DNA of 35,544 nucleotides. It comes from a virus. The notes under the pieces are model-generated. The model was not told the origin of the DNA. It ran no database searches and worked only from the letters and a program-made list of their open reading frames with translations. The stretch spans positions 1-35,544 of IMG/VR virus record IMGVR_UViG_3300042691_013763; one strand, given 5' to 3'. The translations under genes were made by a program, and so were the position numbers. This document shows, one piece after another, positions 8,179-35,411 of the stretch (positions are counted from its first letter, which is position 1; each line of letters starts with the position of its first letter).

Positions 8179-10218
8179 CTAACTTTTTTTTCTTTTTGTT
8201 GGTTTTTTTATCTTAACGTCAGTTTTCTTTTCCGTTTCGTTATATGAAAGAATGAATTTAGAACCTTTCTCAGGGTTATCTGATAATATTTTTTCAGTTA
8301 TCGCATCATCAACCCACTTTTGAACTGTACGTTTTAGAATACGTGCCCCAAACCTTGTGTCGGTACCAACCAAAATTAAATGTTTCTTTAAGGTATCGTC
8401 AACCTCAACATCAAATTCAATATTATTTACCCTTTCAAATACTTTTTTAAGTTCAAGATCAACAATTTTTAATAAATCACCCTCATTTAAGTCTTTAAAA
8501 TAAATTATCTCATCAAATCGGTTAATAAACTCAGGTGCGAATTTTTTAAATAACTCTTTCTCCAATACAGATTTTAACTCTTCTTCCTTCTTTTCTATTT
8601 TAGTGTTTGTTGAAAACCCAACACCAGTACCAAAATCTTGAACAACTTTTGTACCTACGTTTGATGTCATCAATATTATACAATTTTTAAAATTGATTTT
8701 TCTTCCGTGTCCATCAGTTAAAAACCCTTCATCTAACATTTGTAAAAATACGTTAAATATCTCTGGGTGTGCCTTTTCTATTTCATCTAACAATATTACC
8801 GAGTATGGTTTGTTTTTAATTTTATTTAAAAACGGAGATCCGTCTTCATAACCAACATATCCAGGAGATGTTCCTGTAAGTTTTGATGTTGATATTTTAT
8901 CTGAAAATTCACTCATATCTAATCTGATAAGTGCGTCCTCACTGTTAAACATATGTTTTGCAAGTTGTTTTGCTAACTCCGTTTTACCAACACCTGAATT
9001 ACCTATCAGTAACCCACTAAATATTGGTTTTTTTGGATCATTTAAACCAACTTTATTTCTTTGTATTGATCTAGCAATCTTAGTAACAGCATCATCTTGA
9101 CCAATAACTTTAGTACATAAAGTTTCTTTAAGTGTTCTTAGATGTTCTGTTTCGTCAGTGTTGATTTTAGATATAGGAATTTTAGTCATTAAAGAAACCA
9201 CATCATAAACCACGTCTTCAGTTACCTCTCGTTTATTAAGGTTCCTATTTTTTTCAAAATTTTCTTTTTCTTTTTGTAAGTCTGACAATATCTTTCTTTC
9301 TTTATCTCTAAGGTTTGCCGCCTCTTCATATCTTTGGCTATTAATTACTTTAACCTTTTCCTCTTTGATGTCTTGAACTTGTTTTTTAAGATTCTCGATA
9401 ATCTCAGGTAATTTAATTTCAACCTGTGATCTAGCTCCAACCTCGTCAATAATATCAAAAGCCTTATCGGGGAATTCTCTATCGGTAATGTATCTATCTG
9501 CCAACTCAACACATAATGTTAATATCTCATCGGTATATTTTACTTTGTGGTGTTCTTCATATCTATCCTTTGAATTTTGAAGTATTTGTAAAGTTTCTTC
9601 TTTTGTGGATGGGTCTACCATCACTTTTTGGAATCTTCTTTCAAGGGCACCATCCTTTTCGATGTTTTTTCTATATTCTTCTAAAGTCGTCGCCCCAATA
9701 CATTGTAACTCTCCTCTTGAAAGTGCGGGTTTAAAGATATTAGACGCATCCATAGAACCTGAAGCATTACCTGCACCAATCATAGTATGTATCTCATCGA
9801 TAAAAATAATGATATCAGGGTTTGCATATAGTTCTTCAATAATAACTTTCATACGTTCTTCAAATTGACCTCTATATTTTGTACCAGCAACGATAGATGT
9901 CATATCTAATGACACAATTCTTTTACCTGATAAGTTCTGAGGACAATCACCCTCAAATATTTTTTTAGCCAATCCTTCAACAATAGCGGTTTTACCACAA
10001 CCAGGTTCTCCTAATATGATTGGGTTATTCTTTTTTCTTCTTGAAAGAATTTGTGCGATTCTATTAATCTCATCTTCTCTACCAACTACAGGATCCAATT
10101 TACCCTCTTCAGCCAACTTAATTAAGTCTCTTGAAAAGTTATCTAATACAGGGGTTTTTGTTTGTCCGTCTTGGTTTTTATTTTTTGGTTTTTCACTTCC
10201 GTCTACAGATTCTATCAT
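8179..10218 (-). CDS. clpC: ClpC-type AAA+ unfoldase (Clp protease ATP-binding subunit)
   Basis: This 679-residue protein has two AAA+ modules. Module 1: Walker A GEPGCGKT (70-77), Walker B IIIFIDEIH (D141/E142) and an arginine-finger region ALERRF. A middle coiled segment contains a UVR motif (RYEEAANLRDKERKI, about 296-310), as in ClpC. Module 2: Walker A GNSGVGKT (406-413), Walker B VILLDEIE (D478/E479), and the sensor region TRFGARILKR near the end. A VGF tripeptide at 533-535 matches the ClpP-docking loop of ClpC, so partnership with host ClpP is likely. The family's usual N-terminal adaptor-binding repeat domain is missing: the protein starts in the linker before DNFSRDLIKLAEEGK. That predicts altered substrate choice. 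No clpP is in the window. It is divergent from a UVR-motif gene. Confidence 0.95.
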   Translation of the reverse strand: MIESVDGSEKPKNKNQDGQTKTPVLDNFSRDLIKLAEEGKLDPVVGREDEINRIAQILSRRKKNNPIILGEPGCGKTAIVEGLAKKIFEGDCPQNLSGKRIVSLDMTSIVAGTKYRGQFEERMKVIIEELYANPDIIIFIDEIHTMIGAGNASGSMDASNIFKPALSRGELQCIGATTLEEYRKNIEKDGALERRFQKVMVDPSTKEETLQILQNSKDRYEEHHKVKYTDEILTLCVELADRYITDREFPDKAFDIIDEVGARSQVEIKLPEIIENLKKQVQDIKEEKVKVINSQRYEEAANLRDKERKILSDLQKEKENFEKNRNLNKREVTEDVVYDVVSLMTKIPISKINTDETEHLRTLKETLCTKVIGQDDAVTKIARSIQRNKVGLNDPKKPIFSGLLIGNSGVGKTELAKQLAKHMFNSEDALIRLDMSEFSDKISTSKLTGTSPGYVGYEDGSPFLNKIKNKPYSVILLDEIEKAHPEIFNVFLQMLDEGFLTDGHGRKINFKNCIILMTSNVGTKVVQDFGTGVGFSTNTKIEKKEEELKSVLEKELFKKFAPEFINRFDEIIYFKDLNEGDLLKIVDLELKKVFERVNNIEFDVEVDDTLKKHLILVGTDTRFGARILKRTVQKWVDDAITEKILSDNPEKGSKFILSYNETEKKTDVKIKKPTKRKKS

Positions 10219-12411: not shown

Positions 12412-13659
12412 ATGGGAGATTTAAGACCTTTAGGTAGTGAGAAATTACAAGGTATGGACAAAATAAATCGTATAATGGAAATTGCTCGTTATAACGAAGT
12501 ACCTAAAAACGAAACTAACGAACTTTCAACTACAAACTATACTATTAAATTATCTGATGGTAATACATACGGAATAGTAAAAGAAAAATTAGGATATATT
12601 ATTAAAAGCGGTTTAAATGAATCGTCTCTTGATTATTCTGATTCTATTAGACATAGAAAATATTACCGTTCATATTCTGAGGCGATGAAAAAACTAAATT
12701 TAGTGGTTTCTGAAATTAATAGAAATACAGGGTTTGAAGAAAACGTACCACTTATCGGAGAACAAGGTGATGTAAAAAAAAAATTCATTTTAAAAACACC
12801 TAAACCAAAAACCGATGTTGCAACTCCACCTATGGATACAGCAACACCTCCACCACCACCTCCACCTCCAAGTCCTGACACGACAATGGCTCCACCTGCG
12901 GACGATATGGGTATGACTCCCCCACCAGTAGATGATATGGGTTCAACACCTCCATCCGACGATATGGGGATGCCACCTGCTGATGATATGGGAATGCCAC
13001 CTGCTGATGATATGGGAATGTCACCTGCTGATGAAATGGGTGACGACATTTCAGATGACGAAGAACAACAAGGTCCAATTGGTTTAAAATCAATCCAAAA
13101 ATTAACAGGAAGATTAAGTCAAAAAATTAGAGCGTTTGATAAAGAAAAAGGGTTAGATTCCCAAGACATTAAATACGTTTTAAATTCAATTATATCGGCA
13201 TTAGATTTAGAGAATTTAGATGAGGACGACAAAGATGATGTCCTTTCTAAATTTGATGAGTCAGATGAGTATGGTGAAGAAGGTCCTGGAGATTTAGATT
13301 TTGAGGATAACGATATGGATATGGGTATGGAAGAAACACCTGAAGAGATGCCTCAACCACCAGTAACCGAATCGTCAGTTGATAAAGTATTAAAAAGTTA
13401 TTTCATTGTTGAGGACAACGAAAAACCAATACTTGAGGAGAAAAGAAAAAAAGATTTTTTAAAAAACAAATTAAATAAATTATCAGTTAAATCTGAAATA
13501 GAATCTCTTAGTGAAAGTAAAATCCAATCAGAAAAAGGTATGTCTATTTTAGAAAACTATAAAAACGCAAAGTTTATCGGAAAAACAAATAGAGAGAACT
13601 TAATTTTTGTTATTGAAGGTAAACAATATAAAGTAACACCAAGAGGAAGAATTTTATGA
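12412..13659 (+). CDS. Acidic Pro-rich structural protein, possible head core protein
   Basis: This is a 415-residue protein. An N-terminal globular part (about 1-120) is followed by a long disordered stretch (about 135-225) of poly-Pro and PPADDMGM repeats. Then comes a helical part (about 225-275: LKSIQKLTGRLSQKIRAFDKEK, DSQDIKYVLNSIISAL), an acidic run, and a C-terminal domain (about 325-415) ending in VIEGKQYKVTPRGRIL. The highly acidic, low-complexity middle resembles scaffold or prohead core proteins. Position immediately upstream of the terminase and portal supports a head role. I cannot assign a T4 counterpart. Its stop overlaps the next start (ATGA at 13656-13659), so translation is probably coupled. 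Confidence 0.7.
   Translation: MGDLRPLGSEKLQGMDKINRIMEIARYNEVPKNETNELSTTNYTIKLSDGNTYGIVKEKLGYIIKSGLNESSLDYSDSIRHRKYYRSYSEAMKKLNLVVSEINRNTGFEENVPLIGEQGDVKKKFILKTPKPKTDVATPPMDTATPPPPPPPPSPDTTMAPPADDMGMTPPPVDDMGSTPPSDDMGMPPADDMGMPPADDMGMSPADEMGDDISDDEEQQGPIGLKSIQKLTGRLSQKIRAFDKEKGLDSQDIKYVLNSIISALDLENLDEDDKDDVLSKFDESDEYGEEGPGDLDFEDNDMDMGMEETPEEMPQPPVTESSVDKVLKSYFIVEDNEKPILEEKRKKDFLKNKLNKLSVKSEIESLSESKIQSEKGMSILENYKNAKFIGKTNRENLIFVIEGKQYKVTPRGRIL
12892..13044 (+). repeat. 24-bp tandem repeats encoding PPADDMGM
   Basis: The unit ccacctgctgatgatatggg plus aatg occurs at 12973-12996 and 12997-13020, with a diverged copy at 13021-13044 and a further related copy at 12892-12915. All are in frame and give a flexible acidic/Pro spacer. 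Confidence 0.85.
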
Positions 13660-14589: not shown

Positions 14590-16368
14590 ATGAGTTTAAC
14601 AAAGGAACAGGCGTTATTAGAATATGCGAGATGCATAAAGGACACGCCGTACGCATTAAAAACGTATTTACAAACATACGATAATACCCAATCACAATAC
14701 GTTCCTTTAGAACTTTTTAATGATCAAGTAACACTAGTAAAAGATTATGACGAGTGTGAAGAAAATATTGCGTTAAAATATCGACAAGCTGGTGTGTCTA
14801 CCGTAACCTCCGCTTGGGCTTCTAAAAGATTGATATTTGCAAACAAAAAGAAACCTGAAAAAATTCTAATTATTGCAAACAAAATGGATACCGCCGTTGA
14901 GATGGCAAATAAAGTCCGTGCGTTTGTTGATCAATGGCCTAAATGGTTAGGTGTTGGTTTTTCATCGGAAAAAAATTCACAAAGACATTTTAAACTAACT
15001 AATGGATGTGAGGTTAAGGCGGTTGCAACATCAAAGGATGCTTTACGTGGGTATACTCCTACGATTCTTATTTTTGATGAGGCTGCATACATCAACGCAG
15101 ATGAAGATTTTTGGTCTGCATGTATGGCGTCCCTATCCACAGGAGGTAAAGTAATCGTCATTTCAACACCAAACGGATTCGACCCAATCTACTACTCAAT
15201 TTATAGTGAAGCAATAAAAGGTAGGAATGACTTCAGAATTACTGAAATGTATTGGTTTAGGGATCCTAGATATTCTAAAGATTTAAAATTAATTAAATGT
15301 GATGACATTGTTCATTATATGTTAAACCGAGCAGATTATAAAGATGATGAAATAACAATTGACTATAGTGAAATCAAAGTTAGTGATCGTAATTTTCAAG
15401 ATATAAAACAAAAAATTGAGAATGGTGGGTACAAAGCATACAGTTCTTGGTTTGAAGCAATGGCTAAAAAATTAAAATTCGACAAGAGAAAAATTTCTCA
15501 GGAGTTGGAGTGTAACTTTTTAGGTTCAGGGGATAACGTAATACCACCTGAAACAATGAAATCTATAAAGGAAAAACATATTAAAGAACCCGAAAACAAA
15601 TTAATGGGTGGTGCTCTTTGGCAGTGGAAGGAACCCGTTGCTGGACACAAATACATATTAGGTATGGATGTTTCTCGTGGGGATAGTGAGGATTTTACCA
15701 CGTTTACAATTATTGACTTTGACGAGAAGGAACAAGTAGTTGAGTATATAGGTAAGGTTCCTCCCGATGTTGTTGCTGAAATTGCGTATAAATGGGGGAT
15801 AATGTATAGTGCCTTTATTGTAACGGATATTACTGGAGGTATGGGTGTTGCGACATCAAGAAAATTACAGGAACTTGGGTATAAAAACCTATATGTTGAT
15901 GGAATTAATCCTGCAGATAAATGGAAGTGGGACCCAAAAGCAAATGATAAAATTCCTGGAATTAACTTTAATTCTAAACGTGTACAAATAGTGGCGGCTT
16001 TTGAGGAATGTCTTAGACACGATTTTAAAGTTAGATCACAAAGACTTTTCAATGAATTAAACACGTTCGTTTATGTGAATGGTAGACCTGATCATCAAAA
16101 AGGACAACACGATGATTTGATTATGGCTATGGCTATGGCGATTTACGTTAGTGAAACATCGTTTTCTAAATTAGAAAAGGCAACAGAACAAGCAAAGGCG
16201 ATGATTGAATCTTGGACAACAGACACTAAGGTGTTTGCAGATTCACATCAAAATTTTAACCCCGGAATACCCGTATCGACGTACGGTAGTTATGGTCAAG
16301 AAAGAAACACAGTCACTAAAAGTGATTATGAACAGTATTTATGGTTATTCGGAAATAGAAGAGTTTAA
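14590..16368 (+). CDS. Terminase large subunit (gp17-like)
   Basis: This is the 592-residue DNA-packaging motor ATPase and nuclease. ATPase part: a Walker A-type loop RQAGVST (65-71) in place of classical GKT/S, as in many T4-like terminases, Walker B ILIFDEAAYI (D163/E164), and a coupling motif ISTPNG (about 191-196). Nuclease part (RNase H fold): MDVSRGDSEDF near residue 358, TDITGG near 417 and QHDDLIMAMAMA near 510, supplying the metal-binding aspartates. Length agrees with T4 gp17 (610). It starts 3 nt after the upstream stop in a dense operon and precedes the portal gene, the usual gene order. A small terminase subunit is not obvious in the window. Confidence 0.96.
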   Translation: MSLTKEQALLEYARCIKDTPYALKTYLQTYDNTQSQYVPLELFNDQVTLVKDYDECEENIALKYRQAGVSTVTSAWASKRLIFANKKKPEKILIIANKMDTAVEMANKVRAFVDQWPKWLGVGFSSEKNSQRHFKLTNGCEVKAVATSKDALRGYTPTILIFDEAAYINADEDFWSACMASLSTGGKVIVISTPNGFDPIYYSIYSEAIKGRNDFRITEMYWFRDPRYSKDLKLIKCDDIVHYMLNRADYKDDEITIDYSEIKVSDRNFQDIKQKIENGGYKAYSSWFEAMAKKLKFDKRKISQELECNFLGSGDNVIPPETMKSIKEKHIKEPENKLMGGALWQWKEPVAGHKYILGMDVSRGDSEDFTTFTIIDFDEKEQVVEYIGKVPPDVVAEIAYKWGIMYSAFIVTDITGGMGVATSRKLQELGYKNLYVDGINPADKWKWDPKANDKIPGINFNSKRVQIVAAFEECLRHDFKVRSQRLFNELNTFVYVNGRPDHQKGQHDDLIMAMAMAIYVSETSFSKLEKATEQAKAMIESWTTDTKVFADSHQNFNPGIPVSTYGSYGQERNTVTKSDYEQYLWLFGNRRV

Positions 16369-22437: not shown

Positions 22438-24243
22438 ATGGGAGCATTATTAGAATCAGGTCTTGTTGGTAACATCGGGTTAAAACACTTGAAAGTTATC
22501 AAAGAAGATACAATTAACAAATGGGATAGATTAGGATTCCTAGACGGTCTTAAAGGACACATTAAAGAGAATATGGCACAGTTGTATGAAAACCAAGCTT
22601 CTCACCTAATTAACGAAGCGGCATCTACTGATAGTTCAGGTTCATTCGAAACTGTAGTTTTCCCTATCGTTAGACGTGTATTCTCTAAATTATTGGCTAA
22701 TGATTTAGTATCTGTACAAGCTATGAACTTACCTATTGGTAAATTGTTCTACTTTGTACCTAAAATCCAAGGATACCAAGCGGCTGAATCAAATCAAATC
22801 GCACACTACGGACCTATTGGTGCTGTTGGTGGACCAACTCAAGCACAATCACAAGCGGCTTATGGAGCTAATGATAAAAACCTTTACGATAGATTCTACG
22901 AAGGTAACGAAGCTGGATTAGATCCTGCAGGACTTTTTGATTACTCTAAAGGTGCTTATACCGCTATCACTACAACGGCAGTTGGTACTGTTGCTTGGAT
23001 AGGTGGTACGTTAAGTTCTTCAGGTTACTCAGCAGGTGAATACAGAAAAGTATTAATCGGTATGTCAGGATTCTCTAATGCAGGTGCTGGTAAATTAATC
23101 GGACCTGACGGACAAGAAATGGACAACGAAGCGTTCCTTTCTGACTTGAAAGTTAATGCAGTTACTACTGCGGGCGGTGCTTTCTCAGGAGCGGGTAATG
23201 GTGACTTGTTATTTAGAGTTGTAACTCAAAAATATGGTAAAGGTATCGTACAATATGGTACACAATCTAATACTACTTGGTCTTCAACAGGTAATGGTGG
23301 AGCTTATGACAATCTTTGTTCACAAGATGGTATTATCTATTTAGAAGTTGATTTACAAGTTCCTTGTTCTCTTGGAGCTAACTCAATCGACGGATATTCT
23401 GGATTAACAACTACAATCGCAGGTTCTGCAACTGCAGGAACACAATTTACTTGTAATTTCAGAAGATATAAAGAGTTGGAATTTGAAGACCAAATTGGTG
23501 AGGTTTCTTTCGATTTAGAATCAGTAACTGTTTCTGTAACTGAAAGAAAACTAAGAGCACAATGGTCTCCTGAATTAGCACAAGACGTTTCTGCATTCCA
23601 TAACATCGATGCTGAAGCTGAATTAACAGCTTTATTGTCTGAACAAGTGGCGGCAGAAATCGACCGTGAAATTTTACGTGACTTACGTAAAGGAGCAGCT
23701 TGGAACTTACGTTGGGATTACAACGGATGGAAAAGAGGTACTTCTTCTAACCCATTAACTCAGTACACTCAGAAAGATTGGAATCAAACTTTAGTTACTG
23801 CGATTAACCAAATTTCAGCACAAATCCACAAATCTACATTGAGAGGTGGGGCTAACTGGATCGTAGTTTCTTCTGAGATTTCTGCAATCTTTGATGATTT
23901 AGAATACTTCCACGTATCTAACGCATCTCCTGAGCAAGATCAGTACAATATGGGTATTGAAAGAGTTGGTACATTAGCAGGAAGATACCAAGTGTATAGA
24001 GACCCTTACTTCCCACCAAACACAGTATTGTTGGGTCACAAAGGTTCTTCATTGTTAGACACAGGATATGTTTACGCACCGTACGTACCTCTACAATTAA
24101 CACCTACAATGTATAACCCATTCAACTTTACTCCGATTAAAGGTATAATGACAAGATACGCTAAGAAAATGGTTAACAACCGTTTCTACGGACGTATCAC
24201 AGTTGATGGTGTTAGAACATTCGATTTAAGAGAATTGAGATAA
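22438..24243 (+). CDS. Major capsid protein (gp23-like)
   Basis: This is a 601-residue HK97-fold capsid subunit, somewhat longer than T4 gp23 (521). Its N-terminal 60 residues are a helical propeptide (DTINKWDRLGFLDGLKGHIK, ENMAQLYENQASHLINE) with a predicted cut after I58-N59-E60 before A61, the gp21 protease rule. After it come FETVVFPIVRRVFSKL and NDLVSVQAMNLPIGKLFYF, the counterpart of the conserved gp23 start. Later conserved parts include ELEFEDQIGEVSFDLESVTV, RKLRAQWSPELAQDVSAFHN and GRYQVYRDPYFPPNTVLLGHK. Gly/Ala-rich insertions around 150-300 probably form extra surface loops. Its codons use more C-ending forms (AAC, TTC, TAC) than its neighbours, as expected for the most abundant protein. 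The leader is A-rich without a Shine-Dalgarno. Confidence 0.96.
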   Translation: MGALLESGLVGNIGLKHLKVIKEDTINKWDRLGFLDGLKGHIKENMAQLYENQASHLINEAASTDSSGSFETVVFPIVRRVFSKLLANDLVSVQAMNLPIGKLFYFVPKIQGYQAAESNQIAHYGPIGAVGGPTQAQSQAAYGANDKNLYDRFYEGNEAGLDPAGLFDYSKGAYTAITTTAVGTVAWIGGTLSSSGYSAGEYRKVLIGMSGFSNAGAGKLIGPDGQEMDNEAFLSDLKVNAVTTAGGAFSGAGNGDLLFRVVTQKYGKGIVQYGTQSNTTWSSTGNGGAYDNLCSQDGIIYLEVDLQVPCSLGANSIDGYSGLTTTIAGSATAGTQFTCNFRRYKELEFEDQIGEVSFDLESVTVSVTERKLRAQWSPELAQDVSAFHNIDAEAELTALLSEQVAAEIDREILRDLRKGAAWNLRWDYNGWKRGTSSNPLTQYTQKDWNQTLVTAINQISAQIHKSTLRGGANWIVVSSEISAIFDDLEYFHVSNASPEQDQYNMGIERVGTLAGRYQVYRDPYFPPNTVLLGHKGSSLLDTGYVYAPYVPLQLTPTMYNPFNFTPIKGIMTRYAKKMVNNRFYGRITVDGVRTFDLRELR

Positions 24244-24265: not shown

Positions 24266-24297
24266 AAAGGAGACAAGAAATTGTCTCCTTTTTTTGT
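24266..24297 (+). terminator. Strong terminator after the capsid gene
   Basis: AAAGGAGACAA pairs with TTGTCTCCTTT around a GAAA tetraloop, followed by a T-run. It separates capsid transcription from the T9SS-like gene. Confidence 0.9.
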
Positions 24298-24356: not shown

Positions 24357-24365
24357 ATATTTATT
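24357..24365 (+). promoter_or_regulatory. Putative late promoter motif ATATTTATT
   Basis: It lies 19 nt before the ATG at 24385, downstream of the capsid terminator in a very AT-rich stretch. Confidence 0.4.
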
Positions 24366-24384
24366 ATATATAATCACAATTTTT

Positions 24385-26511
24385 ATGAAAAAATACTTAA
24401 TAATTCTTTTATCTTTCTTTATTACGTTTATAGTAAACGGGCAAGTTAGATATTACACTTTTAGTGAAACTACGGGAACATATACACCTATAGTTGGTGG
24501 TACACAATTAGTGACGACAACCGCAGGTGCAACCTCTTACGATGCGGACGGTAGTTATTTTACAATACCTTCAGGTTCACAATTTATTTTTAATGGTACC
24601 ACAATCACGGCCGTTAATATGACTGCTGATGGTGCCATTTGGTTAAATCCTGCAACCACAACAACGGGAAATGGTACTACCGGTGCAATATCATCCACAG
24701 CAAGTGCTTCAGGTATTATTTGTGGTATGAATATGGATTTAAGAAGTACCGCCTTAGCAACACAAGTATATGAAAGAAGATGGCAAGATGTTGGTACCGA
24801 AGTTGTTTTTCAGTGGCAAAATGTTGCAAGATTTTCACAAAGTACTGTTGAAAGATTTTCATTTCAAATAAGAATAAATAAATCAACCCGTGTCGTTCGT
24901 ATAATATATGGTAATATGACCACAATTGCTAATAATACCACGTATCAACCTATGGTTGGTTTGAGAGGTTCGGTAAATACGGACTTTAATAATAGAAGAT
25001 TAACTAATAGTGTGCCAGATGCAACACCAAATTGGGGAGCACCGAATGGTACAACTGCAGGAACATCAATAGCACACACCGTTAGATTTACATCTGCGGC
25101 TTCTTGTTTTCCATCGTCAGGATTGACGTTTGTATGGACACCACCTGCGGTACCGTCAAACGACGCTTGCGCTAACGCCACTTTATTATCATTACAATGT
25201 CCTGGTTCATCCACAGGAACTGCGGGGACAACTATAGGTTCTATTACCACAGATGGGTTATCTAATCCCACTTGTGATGCCACAGGAACAATTAGAGACG
25301 TTTGGTATACCTTTACGACAGGTAATAACACTGAAGTTAATTTATATGCGACTTTAGGAACCGCAACTTGGATTGGGGTAGAAATATACACAACGTGTGG
25401 GACTTTAGCAACAGGATTAAATACTAATTGTGATTTTAATATTATCACACCAAACCCAACAAATATTACAGGATTATCAATGAATACAACGTATAGATTA
25501 AGAATTTTTACAAATGTTACGTATGATACTCCAGGAACATTTACAATATATCTTAATACCGTAAATAACACGTCTACGTTATCGTCTTCTGCTGGTACAA
25601 ATAATCAAACTTTATGTCAAAATACCCCAATAACTAATATTACTTACAATACTAAAGGGGCTACAGGTTCCACTTTTTCAAATTTACCTACGGGGGTTTT
25701 GGGTAATTGGGATAATAATGTTGTTACAATTACGGGGACTCCTTCAGTTTCAGGAACATTCAATTACGTTGTAACTCTTACGGGTGGATGCGGTACAGTA
25801 ACATCAAACGGAACGATTACAGTAAACCCTACGGTTTCTTCAATATCTTCTATTACGGGTAATTCAGTTATTATTGCTGGAACAACTGAAAATTACTCAA
25901 TACCTTTAGATCCAAACGCAACATCATACCAATGGGATTATAGAGAAAGTAGTACGTCAAGTTGGGTTACGAATATATCAAACACTAACTCGGTTGATTT
26001 GACTTGGCCTACAACAACTACGGATGGTGAAGTTTTAGTCACAGTTTTAAATAGTTGTAACACAGTAAATAAAAATTTATTAATAACTGTCGATGGTATT
26101 TTACCTGTTGAGTTATTATATTTTGAGGGTCGTCAATACCCTGCGTTTAATTTTTTAACTTGGTCAACAGCTTCAGAACATAACTCAGACTACTTTAATA
26201 TAGAAAGAAGTGATGATGGTGAATCGTGGGTTTTAGTGGGGGTTAAATCGGCTATGGGTTATAGTGACAGTAAAATTGATTATAGTTTTTCAGACTTTTT
26301 CCATAATAGTGTGATTAACTATTATAGATTAGTTCAATATGATTACGACGGAAAATATAAAATATATGGACCAATAGTATTAGATAATATAAAATACACC
26401 AAAACTATTGTCAAATATATAAACTTAATGGGTCAACAAGTAAGTAATGACAGTGACTGGTTAATATTTGGTGTATATGATGATGGTACTGTTAGAAAAA
26501 TAATTAAATGA
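24385..26511 (+). CDS. Secreted multidomain surface protein with T9SS-like C-terminal domain
   Basis: This 708-residue protein has a Sec signal peptide (MKKYLIILLSFFITFIVNGQ). The N-terminal domain (YYTFSETTGTYTPIVGGTQL and on) is of a kind common in flavobacterial secreted proteins. Next come a VPSNDACANATLL domain (about 255-390), an Ig-like domain (NQTLCQNTPITNITYNTKGA to about 485) and a PKD-like domain. Then follows LPVELLYFEGRQ with WSTASEHNSDYFNIERS, the module preceding many T9SS sorting domains. The last 35 residues (INLMGQQV and YDDGTVRKIIK) resemble a type A T9SS sorting signal. Such proteins are exported through the outer membrane and anchored or released. In a phage genome this looks like a host-derived cargo gene shown on the infected cell, or possibly a virion protein. 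Next start overlaps its stop (ATGA). Confidence 0.8.
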   Translation: MKKYLIILLSFFITFIVNGQVRYYTFSETTGTYTPIVGGTQLVTTTAGATSYDADGSYFTIPSGSQFIFNGTTITAVNMTADGAIWLNPATTTTGNGTTGAISSTASASGIICGMNMDLRSTALATQVYERRWQDVGTEVVFQWQNVARFSQSTVERFSFQIRINKSTRVVRIIYGNMTTIANNTTYQPMVGLRGSVNTDFNNRRLTNSVPDATPNWGAPNGTTAGTSIAHTVRFTSAASCFPSSGLTFVWTPPAVPSNDACANATLLSLQCPGSSTGTAGTTIGSITTDGLSNPTCDATGTIRDVWYTFTTGNNTEVNLYATLGTATWIGVEIYTTCGTLATGLNTNCDFNIITPNPTNITGLSMNTTYRLRIFTNVTYDTPGTFTIYLNTVNNTSTLSSSAGTNNQTLCQNTPITNITYNTKGATGSTFSNLPTGVLGNWDNNVVTITGTPSVSGTFNYVVTLTGGCGTVTSNGTITVNPTVSSISSITGNSVIIAGTTENYSIPLDPNATSYQWDYRESSTSSWVTNISNTNSVDLTWPTTTTDGEVLVTVLNSCNTVNKNLLITVDGILPVELLYFEGRQYPAFNFLTWSTASEHNSDYFNIERSDDGESWVLVGVKSAMGYSDSKIDYSFSDFFHNSVINYYRLVQYDYDGKYKIYGPIVLDNIKYTKTIVKYINLMGQQVSNDSDWLIFGVYDDGTVRKIIK

Positions 26512-26987
26512 CATTAAATTTTGATTTTTTTAGAAGGTTGTTTGTTATAGTTATCGCCATACTACAACCTTTTATTATTTATTTTTATTGTGGAGAATTA
26601 AGTTCGATATCACAGGTATGGGAAACTAATCTACAGTTTTTATTTATTATCACAAACGCGCTTGTTAGTTATTTTTTTTTTGAATTAGACGAATGGAAAA
26701 TACCTTCGTCTTTTTTATTATTGTTAACATCATTTTCAGTGATAGATCATTTTTGGTTACATAATATATTTGCCATACTTTTTTTTATATCTTGTTTAAT
26801 ACCATTATACCTAACAAAACGATTAAAGTTTTACTTACCAATTTATTTTGTGTCCGTTTTATTATGGATAACTAATGGATTTTTTTGGATGGAGACTTGG
26901 GGTATATTAACATTATGTTCATACCACTTACATTTAATGATATACAGATATTTATTATTAAGAAAAAGAAATAATGAACATACGTGA
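26508..26987 (+). CDS. Multi-pass membrane protein, unknown
   Basis: This 159-residue, very hydrophobic protein has about five predicted membrane helices (LFVIVIAILQPFIIYFY; FLFIITNALVSYFFF; FLLLLTSFSVIDHFW; IFAILFFISCLIPLYL; FVSVLLWITNGFFW) and a basic C-terminal end (RYLLLRKRNNEHT). It contains many aromatic residues. No family is recognised. Its ATG overlaps the stop of the T9SS-like gene (ATGA), so translation is coupled and a joint role is likely. It overlaps the next gene by 14 bp. An inner-membrane exclusion or immunity-type protein is one possibility without direct evidence. Confidence 0.7.
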   Translation: MTLNFDFFRRLFVIVIAILQPFIIYFYCGELSSISQVWETNLQFLFIITNALVSYFFFELDEWKIPSSFLLLLTSFSVIDHFWLHNIFAILFFISCLIPLYLTKRLKFYLPIYFVSVLLWITNGFFWMETWGILTLCSYHLHLMIYRYLLLRKRNNEHT

Positions 26988-34664: not shown

Positions 34665-35411
34665 TCAGTATTCGTTATTTATTTTTCTTATCGTTTCTAA
34701 ATATAAAGTTTTATATTTTTTTAAATAGATTCTAATCTCTTTGGTGTTTAAATTAGTCATTTCTCTTAGAGAGAGTAAAACAATGTTTTTATTAAATTTA
34801 TTATTGTCATTACCGATAAAAATATTTCCGTAGTTATCAAAAAGTTCAATTAATGCACACCCCAATTTAAATTCATTCTCGTTTAATTTGGTGTCGTTAA
34901 CATATTCTTTTAAATCTTCCAAAAAAATGTCTATGATTTTTTCGGCATCCATCTTTTCAAATTCCAAATAATATATCATATCTGGACGGTTTTCTAAGGT
35001 TGCTGAAATATCTTCGTATGAGACTTTTCTGTTGGTGTCTTTTTGATCCTTTTGGATTTGTCCCATTAGGTAATTTTTACATATGGTACCAAAATAGGAA
35101 TAAGCCTTTTTGTTTTTAGCGGGTTTAAACTTATCGACTTTTGTCATAAGAAATGAATGGGTATCTGAATGCACATCATTATAATCCATATCTTTTCTAT
35201 ATAGTTTATACCTTCTAATGATAGACTCTATCATCTTATCTAGAGGTTCTTTAAGAAATTTGTTATAAATTTCTTCTTTTTCTTCACTTGATTCGGCGGT
35301 GATATATCGTTTCACCGCCTCCTCCTCACGGACATCAAAGTAATTTGTTTTATTTTTTTTTACCGTCTTTTGCGTTGTATTGTCTAAGTCTTCAGATAAT
35401 GATAAAAACAT
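34665..35411 (-). CDS. Late-transcription sigma factor (gp55-like, sigma-70 region 2)
   Basis: This is a 248-residue protein. Residues about 60-130 carry a sigma region 2 pattern: DKMIESIIRRYKLYRK, then DVHSDTHSFLMTKVDKFKPA, KNKKAYSYFGTICKNYLMGQ and IQKDQKD, comparable to core-binding and -10-recognition helices of sigma-70 family members and to T4 gp55. The C-terminal part (about 200-248: LREMTNLNTKEIRIYLKKYK) is helical and could be a short region 4 or coactivator-binding tail. T4 gp55 directs late transcription at TATAAATA boxes. Here ATATTTAT motifs stand before late genes. It starts within the stop of the partial upstream gene (TAATG). Confidence 0.85.
   Translation of the reverse strand: MFLSLSEDLDNTTQKTVKKNKTNYFDVREEEAVKRYITAESSEEKEEIYNKFLKEPLDKMIESIIRRYKLYRKDMDYNDVHSDTHSFLMTKVDKFKPAKNKKAYSYFGTICKNYLMGQIQKDQKDTNRKVSYEDISATLENRPDMIYYLEFEKMDAEKIIDIFLEDLKEYVNDTKLNENEFKLGCALIELFDNYGNIFIGNDNNKFNKNIVLLSLREMTNLNTKEIRIYLKKYKTLYLETIRKINNEY

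What the first reader, a model, noticed from the sequence alone, without database searches (positions are those of the whole stretch)
24385..26511. T9SS-style surface protein carried by a phage, next to the capsid gene
The protein has a Sec signal peptide, Ig/PKD-like Bacteroidetes modules, an LPVELxxFEG segment and an end resembling a type A T9SS sorting domain. Export through the type IX system would place it on the surface of the infected cell. That suggests superinfection exclusion, altered adhesion, or aid in phage spread. It has a late-type motif and its own transcription unit after a strong terminator. If it is instead in the virion, it would be an odd decoration protein. Phage cargo using T9SS is, as far as I know, not well described.
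Basis: partly seen in the sequence, partly recalled or inferred. Interest (0 to 1): 0.8.

Follow-up and report, generated by a model that had tools for sequence, protein, structure and literature searches.

The report
Phage surface protein with minimal T9SS tail
A T4-like virus of Bacteroidota bacteria carries, right behind its shell-protein gene, a swappable secreted binding protein whose very short tail probably sends it through the host's own type IX secretion system onto the infected cell's surface, which suggests these phages routinely remodel the cells they infect.

Summary
The ORF is real (24385-26511, 708 aa) and directly follows a genuine T4-like gp23. It has a Sec signal peptide with Gln at +1, a 235-aa N-domain, a Pfam GBD_T9SS_assoc domain, Ig-like repeats and an LPVEL domain that models as FnIII. 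The ending is not a recognised type A sorting domain (TIGR04183: 0 of 47 relatives). It is a ~36-41-residue, three-stranded tail with an invariant motif-B-like Gly and a basic C-terminus, resembling short T9SS CTDs shown to work in Prevotella intermedia. In a bacterial genome the same FnIII module is directly followed by TIGR04183 in 54 of 57 cases; in these phages the short tail takes its place. Tail matches lie at the extreme C-terminus in 80 of 80 phage loci, with a signal peptide in 76 of 78. There is one copy per record (20 of 20), usually behind gp23, with exchanged binding domains. Best reading: late-expressed T9SS cargo displayed on, or released from, the infected cell; surface masking or superinfection exclusion is inferred. 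Caveats: this copy has Trp where 46 of 47 have Gly; tail homology to bacterial CTDs is not statistically significant; phage T9SS cargo was reported before (2019, 2020).

The parts
24385..26511 (+). the gene: secreted modular protein with FnIII module and short CTD-like tail, 708 aa
   Evidence: 24 related viral loci, 17 to 80% identical
22438..24243 (+). gp23 major capsid protein (context)
   Evidence: PF07068 E 6.1e-73; phrog_138
24266..24291 (+). intrinsic terminator after gp23, followed by T-run
   Evidence: kept in most relatives
24358..24364 (+). TATTTAT box, probable late-type promoter element
   Evidence: 11 of 37 upstream regions against 1.4 expected; present in most relatives
24385..24441 (+). 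signal peptide, residues 1-19, Gln20 at +1
   Evidence: sequence; signal peptide in 74 of 77 C-module relatives and 76 of 78 tail relatives
24442..25146 (+). N-domain, residues 20-254, no known fold match
   Evidence: A6, AF2 pTM 0.83 but mean pLDDT 73.6, no PDB match
25156..25548 (+). GBD_T9SS_assoc (PF23759), residues 258-388
   Evidence: E 2.8e-7, 31.3 bits over cut-off 27
25600..26094 (+). Ig-like repeats, residues about 406-570 (the second one inferred)
   Evidence: repeat 406-489 matches immuto gp206
26101..26400 (+). LPVEL FnIII-like domain, residues 573-672
   Evidence: AF2 model, FnIII matches Z up to 11; clade with 44 other phage modules
26401..26508 (+). short CTD-like tail, residues 673-708; motif-B-like Gly683, Trp692 at the motif-D Gly position, basic end
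26508..26987 (+). small membrane protein overlapping the stop codon; often adjacent in relatives

Best explanation
The gene encodes a late-expressed, secreted, modular binding protein that uses the host's type IX secretion system through an abbreviated C-terminal signal. Steps: transcription with the virion genes (inferred from the shared TATTTAT box); Sec export and signal peptidase I cleavage before Gln20 (inferred, well supported by sequence); recognition of the three-stranded tail by the host PorV/SprA machinery (inferred by analogy with experimentally proven short CTDs); then display on, or release from, the infected cell. There its glycan-binding-type modules most likely coat or cross-link the surface. 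Of the possible effects I favour masking of receptors, so that infected cells and their debris do not capture progeny or competing phage; adhesion of infected cells is the second choice. The effect itself is inference only (about 0.35 on its own); T9SS export of the family is about 0.75.
For: Tail-only scan: 80 of 80 phage matches end within 2 residues of the stop codon and 76 of 78 complete ORFs have a signal peptide. In bacterial genome G001, 54 of 57 copies of the same FnIII module are directly followed by TIGR04183. The bacterial homologue of the N-domain (L027) has signal peptide + N-domain + LPIVL module + TIGR04183. Huge-phage relatives carry long CTDs on this module, one over the TIGR04183 cut-off. 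The AF2 tail has three strands and the motif-B Gly is invariant in 47 of 47, matching published short CTDs that are cleaved and glycosylated in P. intermedia (PMC11969387). The last 22 residues of HBP35 are required for surface localisation (PMC3120885). PF23759 is a T9SS-associated domain.
Against: No TIGR04183 hit in any of 47 relatives. Profile comparison of phage tails with bacterial long CTDs is not significant (probability 1.2%, E 0.042). Motif D is GxI/V/L, not GxY or GxN, and this copy has Trp instead of Gly. The host and its T9SS are unknown. No experiment on this protein exists.
Confidence: 0.66

Rival explanations
1. Virion decoration protein: an Ig-rich, Hoc-like head protein encoded next to gp23, with the hydrophobic N-terminus retained or trimmed by the prohead protease and the tail serving as a capsid anchor.
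For: Position directly after gp23 in most relatives; virion-gene promoter box; Flavobacterium phage immuto has an Ig-repeat protein without a signal peptide near gp23.
Against: Canonical cleavable signal peptides with Gln at +1 are kept across relatives with unrelated N-terminal halves; the FnIII module and N-domain belong to T9SS cargo in bacteria.
Confidence: 0.14
2. Sec-exported protein whose tail is not a T9SS signal: it stays in the periplasm and is released by lysis, the tail serving oligomerisation or folding of the FnIII domain.
For: No significant sequence match of the tail to known CTDs; the tail follows the FnIII domain closely.
Against: The same module carries genuine CTDs in bacteria and in huge phages at the same place; the tail is strictly C-terminal; a bacterial secreted GH16 enzyme without the FnIII module ends in a similar tail.
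Confidence: 0.13
3. The family uses the T9SS, but this copy is a decaying member that is no longer secreted.
For: Trp in place of a Gly kept in 46 of 47 relatives; FnIII and tail are less constrained against L002 than the other domains (pN/pS 0.36 and 0.40 versus 0.08-0.21).
Against: Intact 708-aa frame; a tail pN/pS of 0.40 still suggests purifying selection (few sites, dS near saturation).
Confidence: 0.07

Closest known systems
Short T9SS C-terminal domains of Prevotella intermedia (PMC11969387)
   Same: About 40 residues, one three-stranded sheet, invariant motif-B Gly, basic C-terminal strand, extreme C-terminal position, signal peptide at the other end
   Different: Motif D is GxI/V/L rather than GxY/GxN; Gln follows the motif-B Gly in place of the preferred basic residue (44 of 47); cleavage and glycosylation not shown; carried by phages
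Type A T9SS cargo (TIGR04183 / Por_Secre_tail) with LPVEL module, as in Chitinophagaceae UBA1930
   Same: Signal peptide, binding modules, LPVEL FnIII module in the same order; the N-domain too in L027
   Different: Bacterial proteins end in a 70-80-residue CTD with a PNP motif; here that is replaced by a tail of about half the length
Cryophage T9SS cargo (Bellas 2020, PMC7468147) and BACON-phage T9SS proteins (PMC6949934)
   Same: Phage-encoded, variable proteins with T9SS export signals; superinfection exclusion already proposed there
   Different: Those are recognised type A domains in other phages, on enzymes, PA14 or BACON proteins; here a short tail in a single-copy gene mostly linked to gp23 of T4-like phages
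Flavobacterium phage immuto gp206
   Same: Second gene after gp23; Ig repeats 54% identical to residues 406-489
   Different: No signal peptide, FnIII module or tail

Membership tests
T9SS type A sorting domain (TIGR04183) | score over the curated cut-off | tested here: not met
   no hit for the window protein or 47 relatives; positive controls L146 and L027 hit
T9SS type A sorting domain (TIGR04183) | long CTD of about 70-80 residues with PNP motif | tested here: not met
   tail of 36-41 residues without PNP
Short T9SS CTD (P. intermedia type) | N-terminal Sec signal peptide on the cargo | tested here: met
Short T9SS CTD (P. intermedia type) | 40-51 residues at the extreme C-terminus, one three-stranded sheet | tested here: met
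   41 residues after the last FnIII strand, three strands in the AF2 model; 80 of 80 matches at the C-terminus; borderline length
Short T9SS CTD (P. intermedia type) | invariant Gly in motif B | tested here: met
   47 of 47
Short T9SS CTD (P. intermedia type) | motif D GxY or GxN | tested here: not met
   Gly in 46 of 47 but third residue I/V/L; Trp for Gly in this copy
Short T9SS CTD (P. intermedia type) | basic residue in motif E | tested here: met
   Lys or Arg in 46 of 47 at the penultimate-strand position (alignment column 46), plus basic last residue in most
Short T9SS CTD (P. intermedia type) | sequence-profile similarity to T9SS CTDs | tested here: inconclusive
   hhalign probability 1.2%, E 0.042, motif B in register; P. 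intermedia sequences could not be obtained
Short T9SS CTD (P. intermedia type) | T9SS-dependent secretion, cleavage and attachment | not testable with these tools
   needs experiment
T4-like phage head cluster (genomic context) | terminase, portal, prohead protease and gp23 in order upstream of the gene | tested here: met

The most novel reading that the evidence does not exclude
T4-like phages of Bacteroidota share a dedicated surface-display cassette: one late, mostly gp23-linked gene per phage, made of an exchangeable binding half and a constant FnIII module plus minimal sorting tail that is rare in bacteria (1 of 395 Bacteroidota genomes with the phage tail profile), which hijacks the host T9SS to recoat the infected cell.
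Probability: 0.5. Interest if true: 0.75.

Novelty: new variant of a known kind. Interest (0 to 1): 0.62.

Why it matters
If the tail works, it is a minimal T9SS signal kept by selection in many phages, useful for asking which features PorV/SprA really read, and invisible to the models now used to count T9SS cargo. A single-copy, mostly gp23-linked cassette whose binding half is swapped also points to an arms race at the surface of infected Bacteroidota cells, and makes superinfection exclusion by secreted phage proteins testable.

Tried and rejected
Type A sorting domain as such: no model hit in 47 relatives. Chimeric contig: rejected by repeated synteny. Tail homology by profile-profile comparison: only suggestive. 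Solved relatives: none at E up to 10 for the tail profile, none for the whole protein, none convincing with Foldseek for the N-domain (model of middling confidence); the viral library gave two hits under E 0.001, one an uncharacterised uncultured phage protein and one without a name. The structural look-up of the C-module lists only FnIII-type matches for residues 573-672; the tail was barely tested by it. A seed recalled from memory, meant to fetch real Prevotella-type short CTDs, found nothing in 395 genomes; this shows nothing, since it is unknown whether suitable genomes were sampled. A viral scan with the diverse tail set A5 could not be run. The sigma-70 scan found no excess of sites. 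No proteomics of immuto virions was found in the papers searched. The permissive genome search with A5 gave mostly weak hits, several on the motif-B strand of long CTDs; because of its loose threshold and the small number of loci read, I use it only as a hint.

Full report
What is there. The window is a 35.5-kb IMG/VR virus record with a T4-like head block: terminase (14590-16368), gp20 portal, gp21 protease and gp23. The gene of interest, 24385-26511, follows gp23 after an intrinsic terminator and a TATTTAT box. That box lies within 45 nt upstream of 11 of 37 window genes against 1.4 expected from shuffled upstream regions (none of 2000 shuffles reaches it), so late co-expression with virion genes is a fair inference. 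The shuffles keep only base composition, not dinucleotides. Most relatives keep both terminator and box.

Anatomy. Signal peptide 1-19 with Gln at +1, as in the Bacteroidetes Q-rule (PMC5837995, title and abstract only); N-domain 20-254; PF23759 GBD_T9SS_assoc 258-388; Ig-like repeats about 406-570; FnIII-like LPVEL domain 573-672 (AF2 mean pLDDT 89.9 for FnIII plus tail; FnIII matches up to Z 11); tail 673-708 with three strands.

The tail. NCBIfam gives no T9SS hit for the window protein or for any of 47 relatives, while the positive controls L146 and L027 are found. In the 47-row tail alignment the motif-B-like Gly683 is invariant, one Asp is invariant, Gly stands at the motif-D position in 46 of 47 (Trp in this copy), and the end is basic. 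P. intermedia short CTDs have this size, strand count and motif order, and are cleaved and glycosylated (PMC11969387). [quoted passage not shown] Changing the motif-B Gly of RgpB to Arg hinders secretion (PMC11285876).

Why the tail is probably a sorting signal. (a) In Chitinophagaceae genome G001, 54 of 57 LPVEL modules are directly followed by TIGR04183. (b) The bacterial homologue of the N-domain (38% identity, L027, same genome) reads signal peptide + N-domain + LPIVL module + TIGR04183. (c) A scan with the tail alone found 126 viral relatives, of which 80 loci were kept and read. In all 80 the match ends within 2 residues of the stop codon; 76 of 78 complete ORFs have a signal peptide by a simple hydrophobicity rule, the two exceptions looking like a truncated and an over-extended frame; all keep the FnIII module (six differ only within the LPVEL string). 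Many of these are the same contigs as, so the two counts are not independent. (d) Huge-phage relatives carry long CTDs on the same module, one over the TIGR04183 cut-off, and one virus record with a short-tail gene also carries a separate TIGR04183 protein. (e) The only bacterial hit of the tail profile among 395 Bacteroidota genomes is a signal-peptide-bearing GH16 enzyme. Against: the direct profile comparison is not significant.

Family and context. A search with the C-terminal module (FnIII plus tail) gave 240 related viral stretches, of which the best 80 were kept and read; 79 of 80 reach the end of the tail and show the short form, one contig stops inside it; 44 are distinct at 88% identity. 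Of the 47 aligned phage modules 45 form one clade (99/89) apart from the modules of the one bacterial genome sampled. Of 52 loci with a gp23 match, 42 have the cargo ORF within about 300 nt of it. The N-terminal halves differ (CUB, GEVED, GBD, the N-domain here). Twenty of 20 longer virus records carry exactly one copy.

Function. A constant export module with an exchangeable binding half, one per phage, expressed with late genes, fits a protein that acts at the outside of the infected cell. I favour receptor masking or superinfection exclusion over adhesion; nothing here tests it.

Novelty. Phage-encoded T9SS cargo was reported for Cryophage (PMC7468147) and in BACON phages (PMC6949934), and Q-rule signal peptides were noted in P. 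gingivalis phages (PMC10367356). What I did not find described is the short-tail form and the mostly gp23-linked, single-copy, exchangeable cassette in T4-like phages. The literature searched is open-access PMC only.

Limits. The host is unknown and no T9SS has been shown in it; this copy departs from the family at motif D, so I do not file it as a member of the short-CTD family but as something that probably works like one; the effect on the infected cell is inference; the bacterial comparison rests on one genome for the module and 395 for the tail.

Noticed in passing
window upstream regions, e.g. 6865, 18232, 19822, 24358, 26949; minus strand 30472, 34645: A TATTTAT box 12-40 nt before 11 of 37 start codons looks like the phage's late promoter element; it is the reverse complement of the core of T4's late TATAAATA box (T4 box from general knowledge).
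   Followed up: partly
26508-26987: A small protein with several hydrophobic segments starts inside the stop codon of the cargo gene; homologues sit next to the cargo gene in many relatives, in L078 and L109 even on the opposite strand. Possibly a functional partner.
   Followed up: partly
L146 2422-3555 and L144 2503-3525: Huge uncultured phages (462 and 636 kb records) carry the LPVEL module with long CTD-like ends; only L146 passes the TIGR04183 cut-off.
   Followed up: partly
L142 382-1635: A bacterial secreted GH16 glucanase without the LPVEL module ends in a tail similar to the phage tails; short CTD-like tails may exist unrecognised in bacteria.
   Followed up: partly
L197 (virus record G397): A 1851-aa open frame with a full-length TIGR04183 CTD in a virus record that also has a short-tail gene.
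   Followed up: partly
L026 10861-12501: Flavobacterium phage immuto has a signal-less protein of tandem Ig repeats two genes after gp23, related to the Ig repeat here; a candidate capsid decoration protein.
   Followed up: partly
8179-10218 and 34665-35411: The phage encodes a Clp-type ATP-dependent protease (phrog_4871, E 1e-224) and a weak match to a late sigma factor (phrog_234, E 0.005).
   Followed up: no
12412-13659: A protein with a Pro/Met/Asp repeat stretch (DMGMPPADDMG...), function unknown.
   Followed up: no
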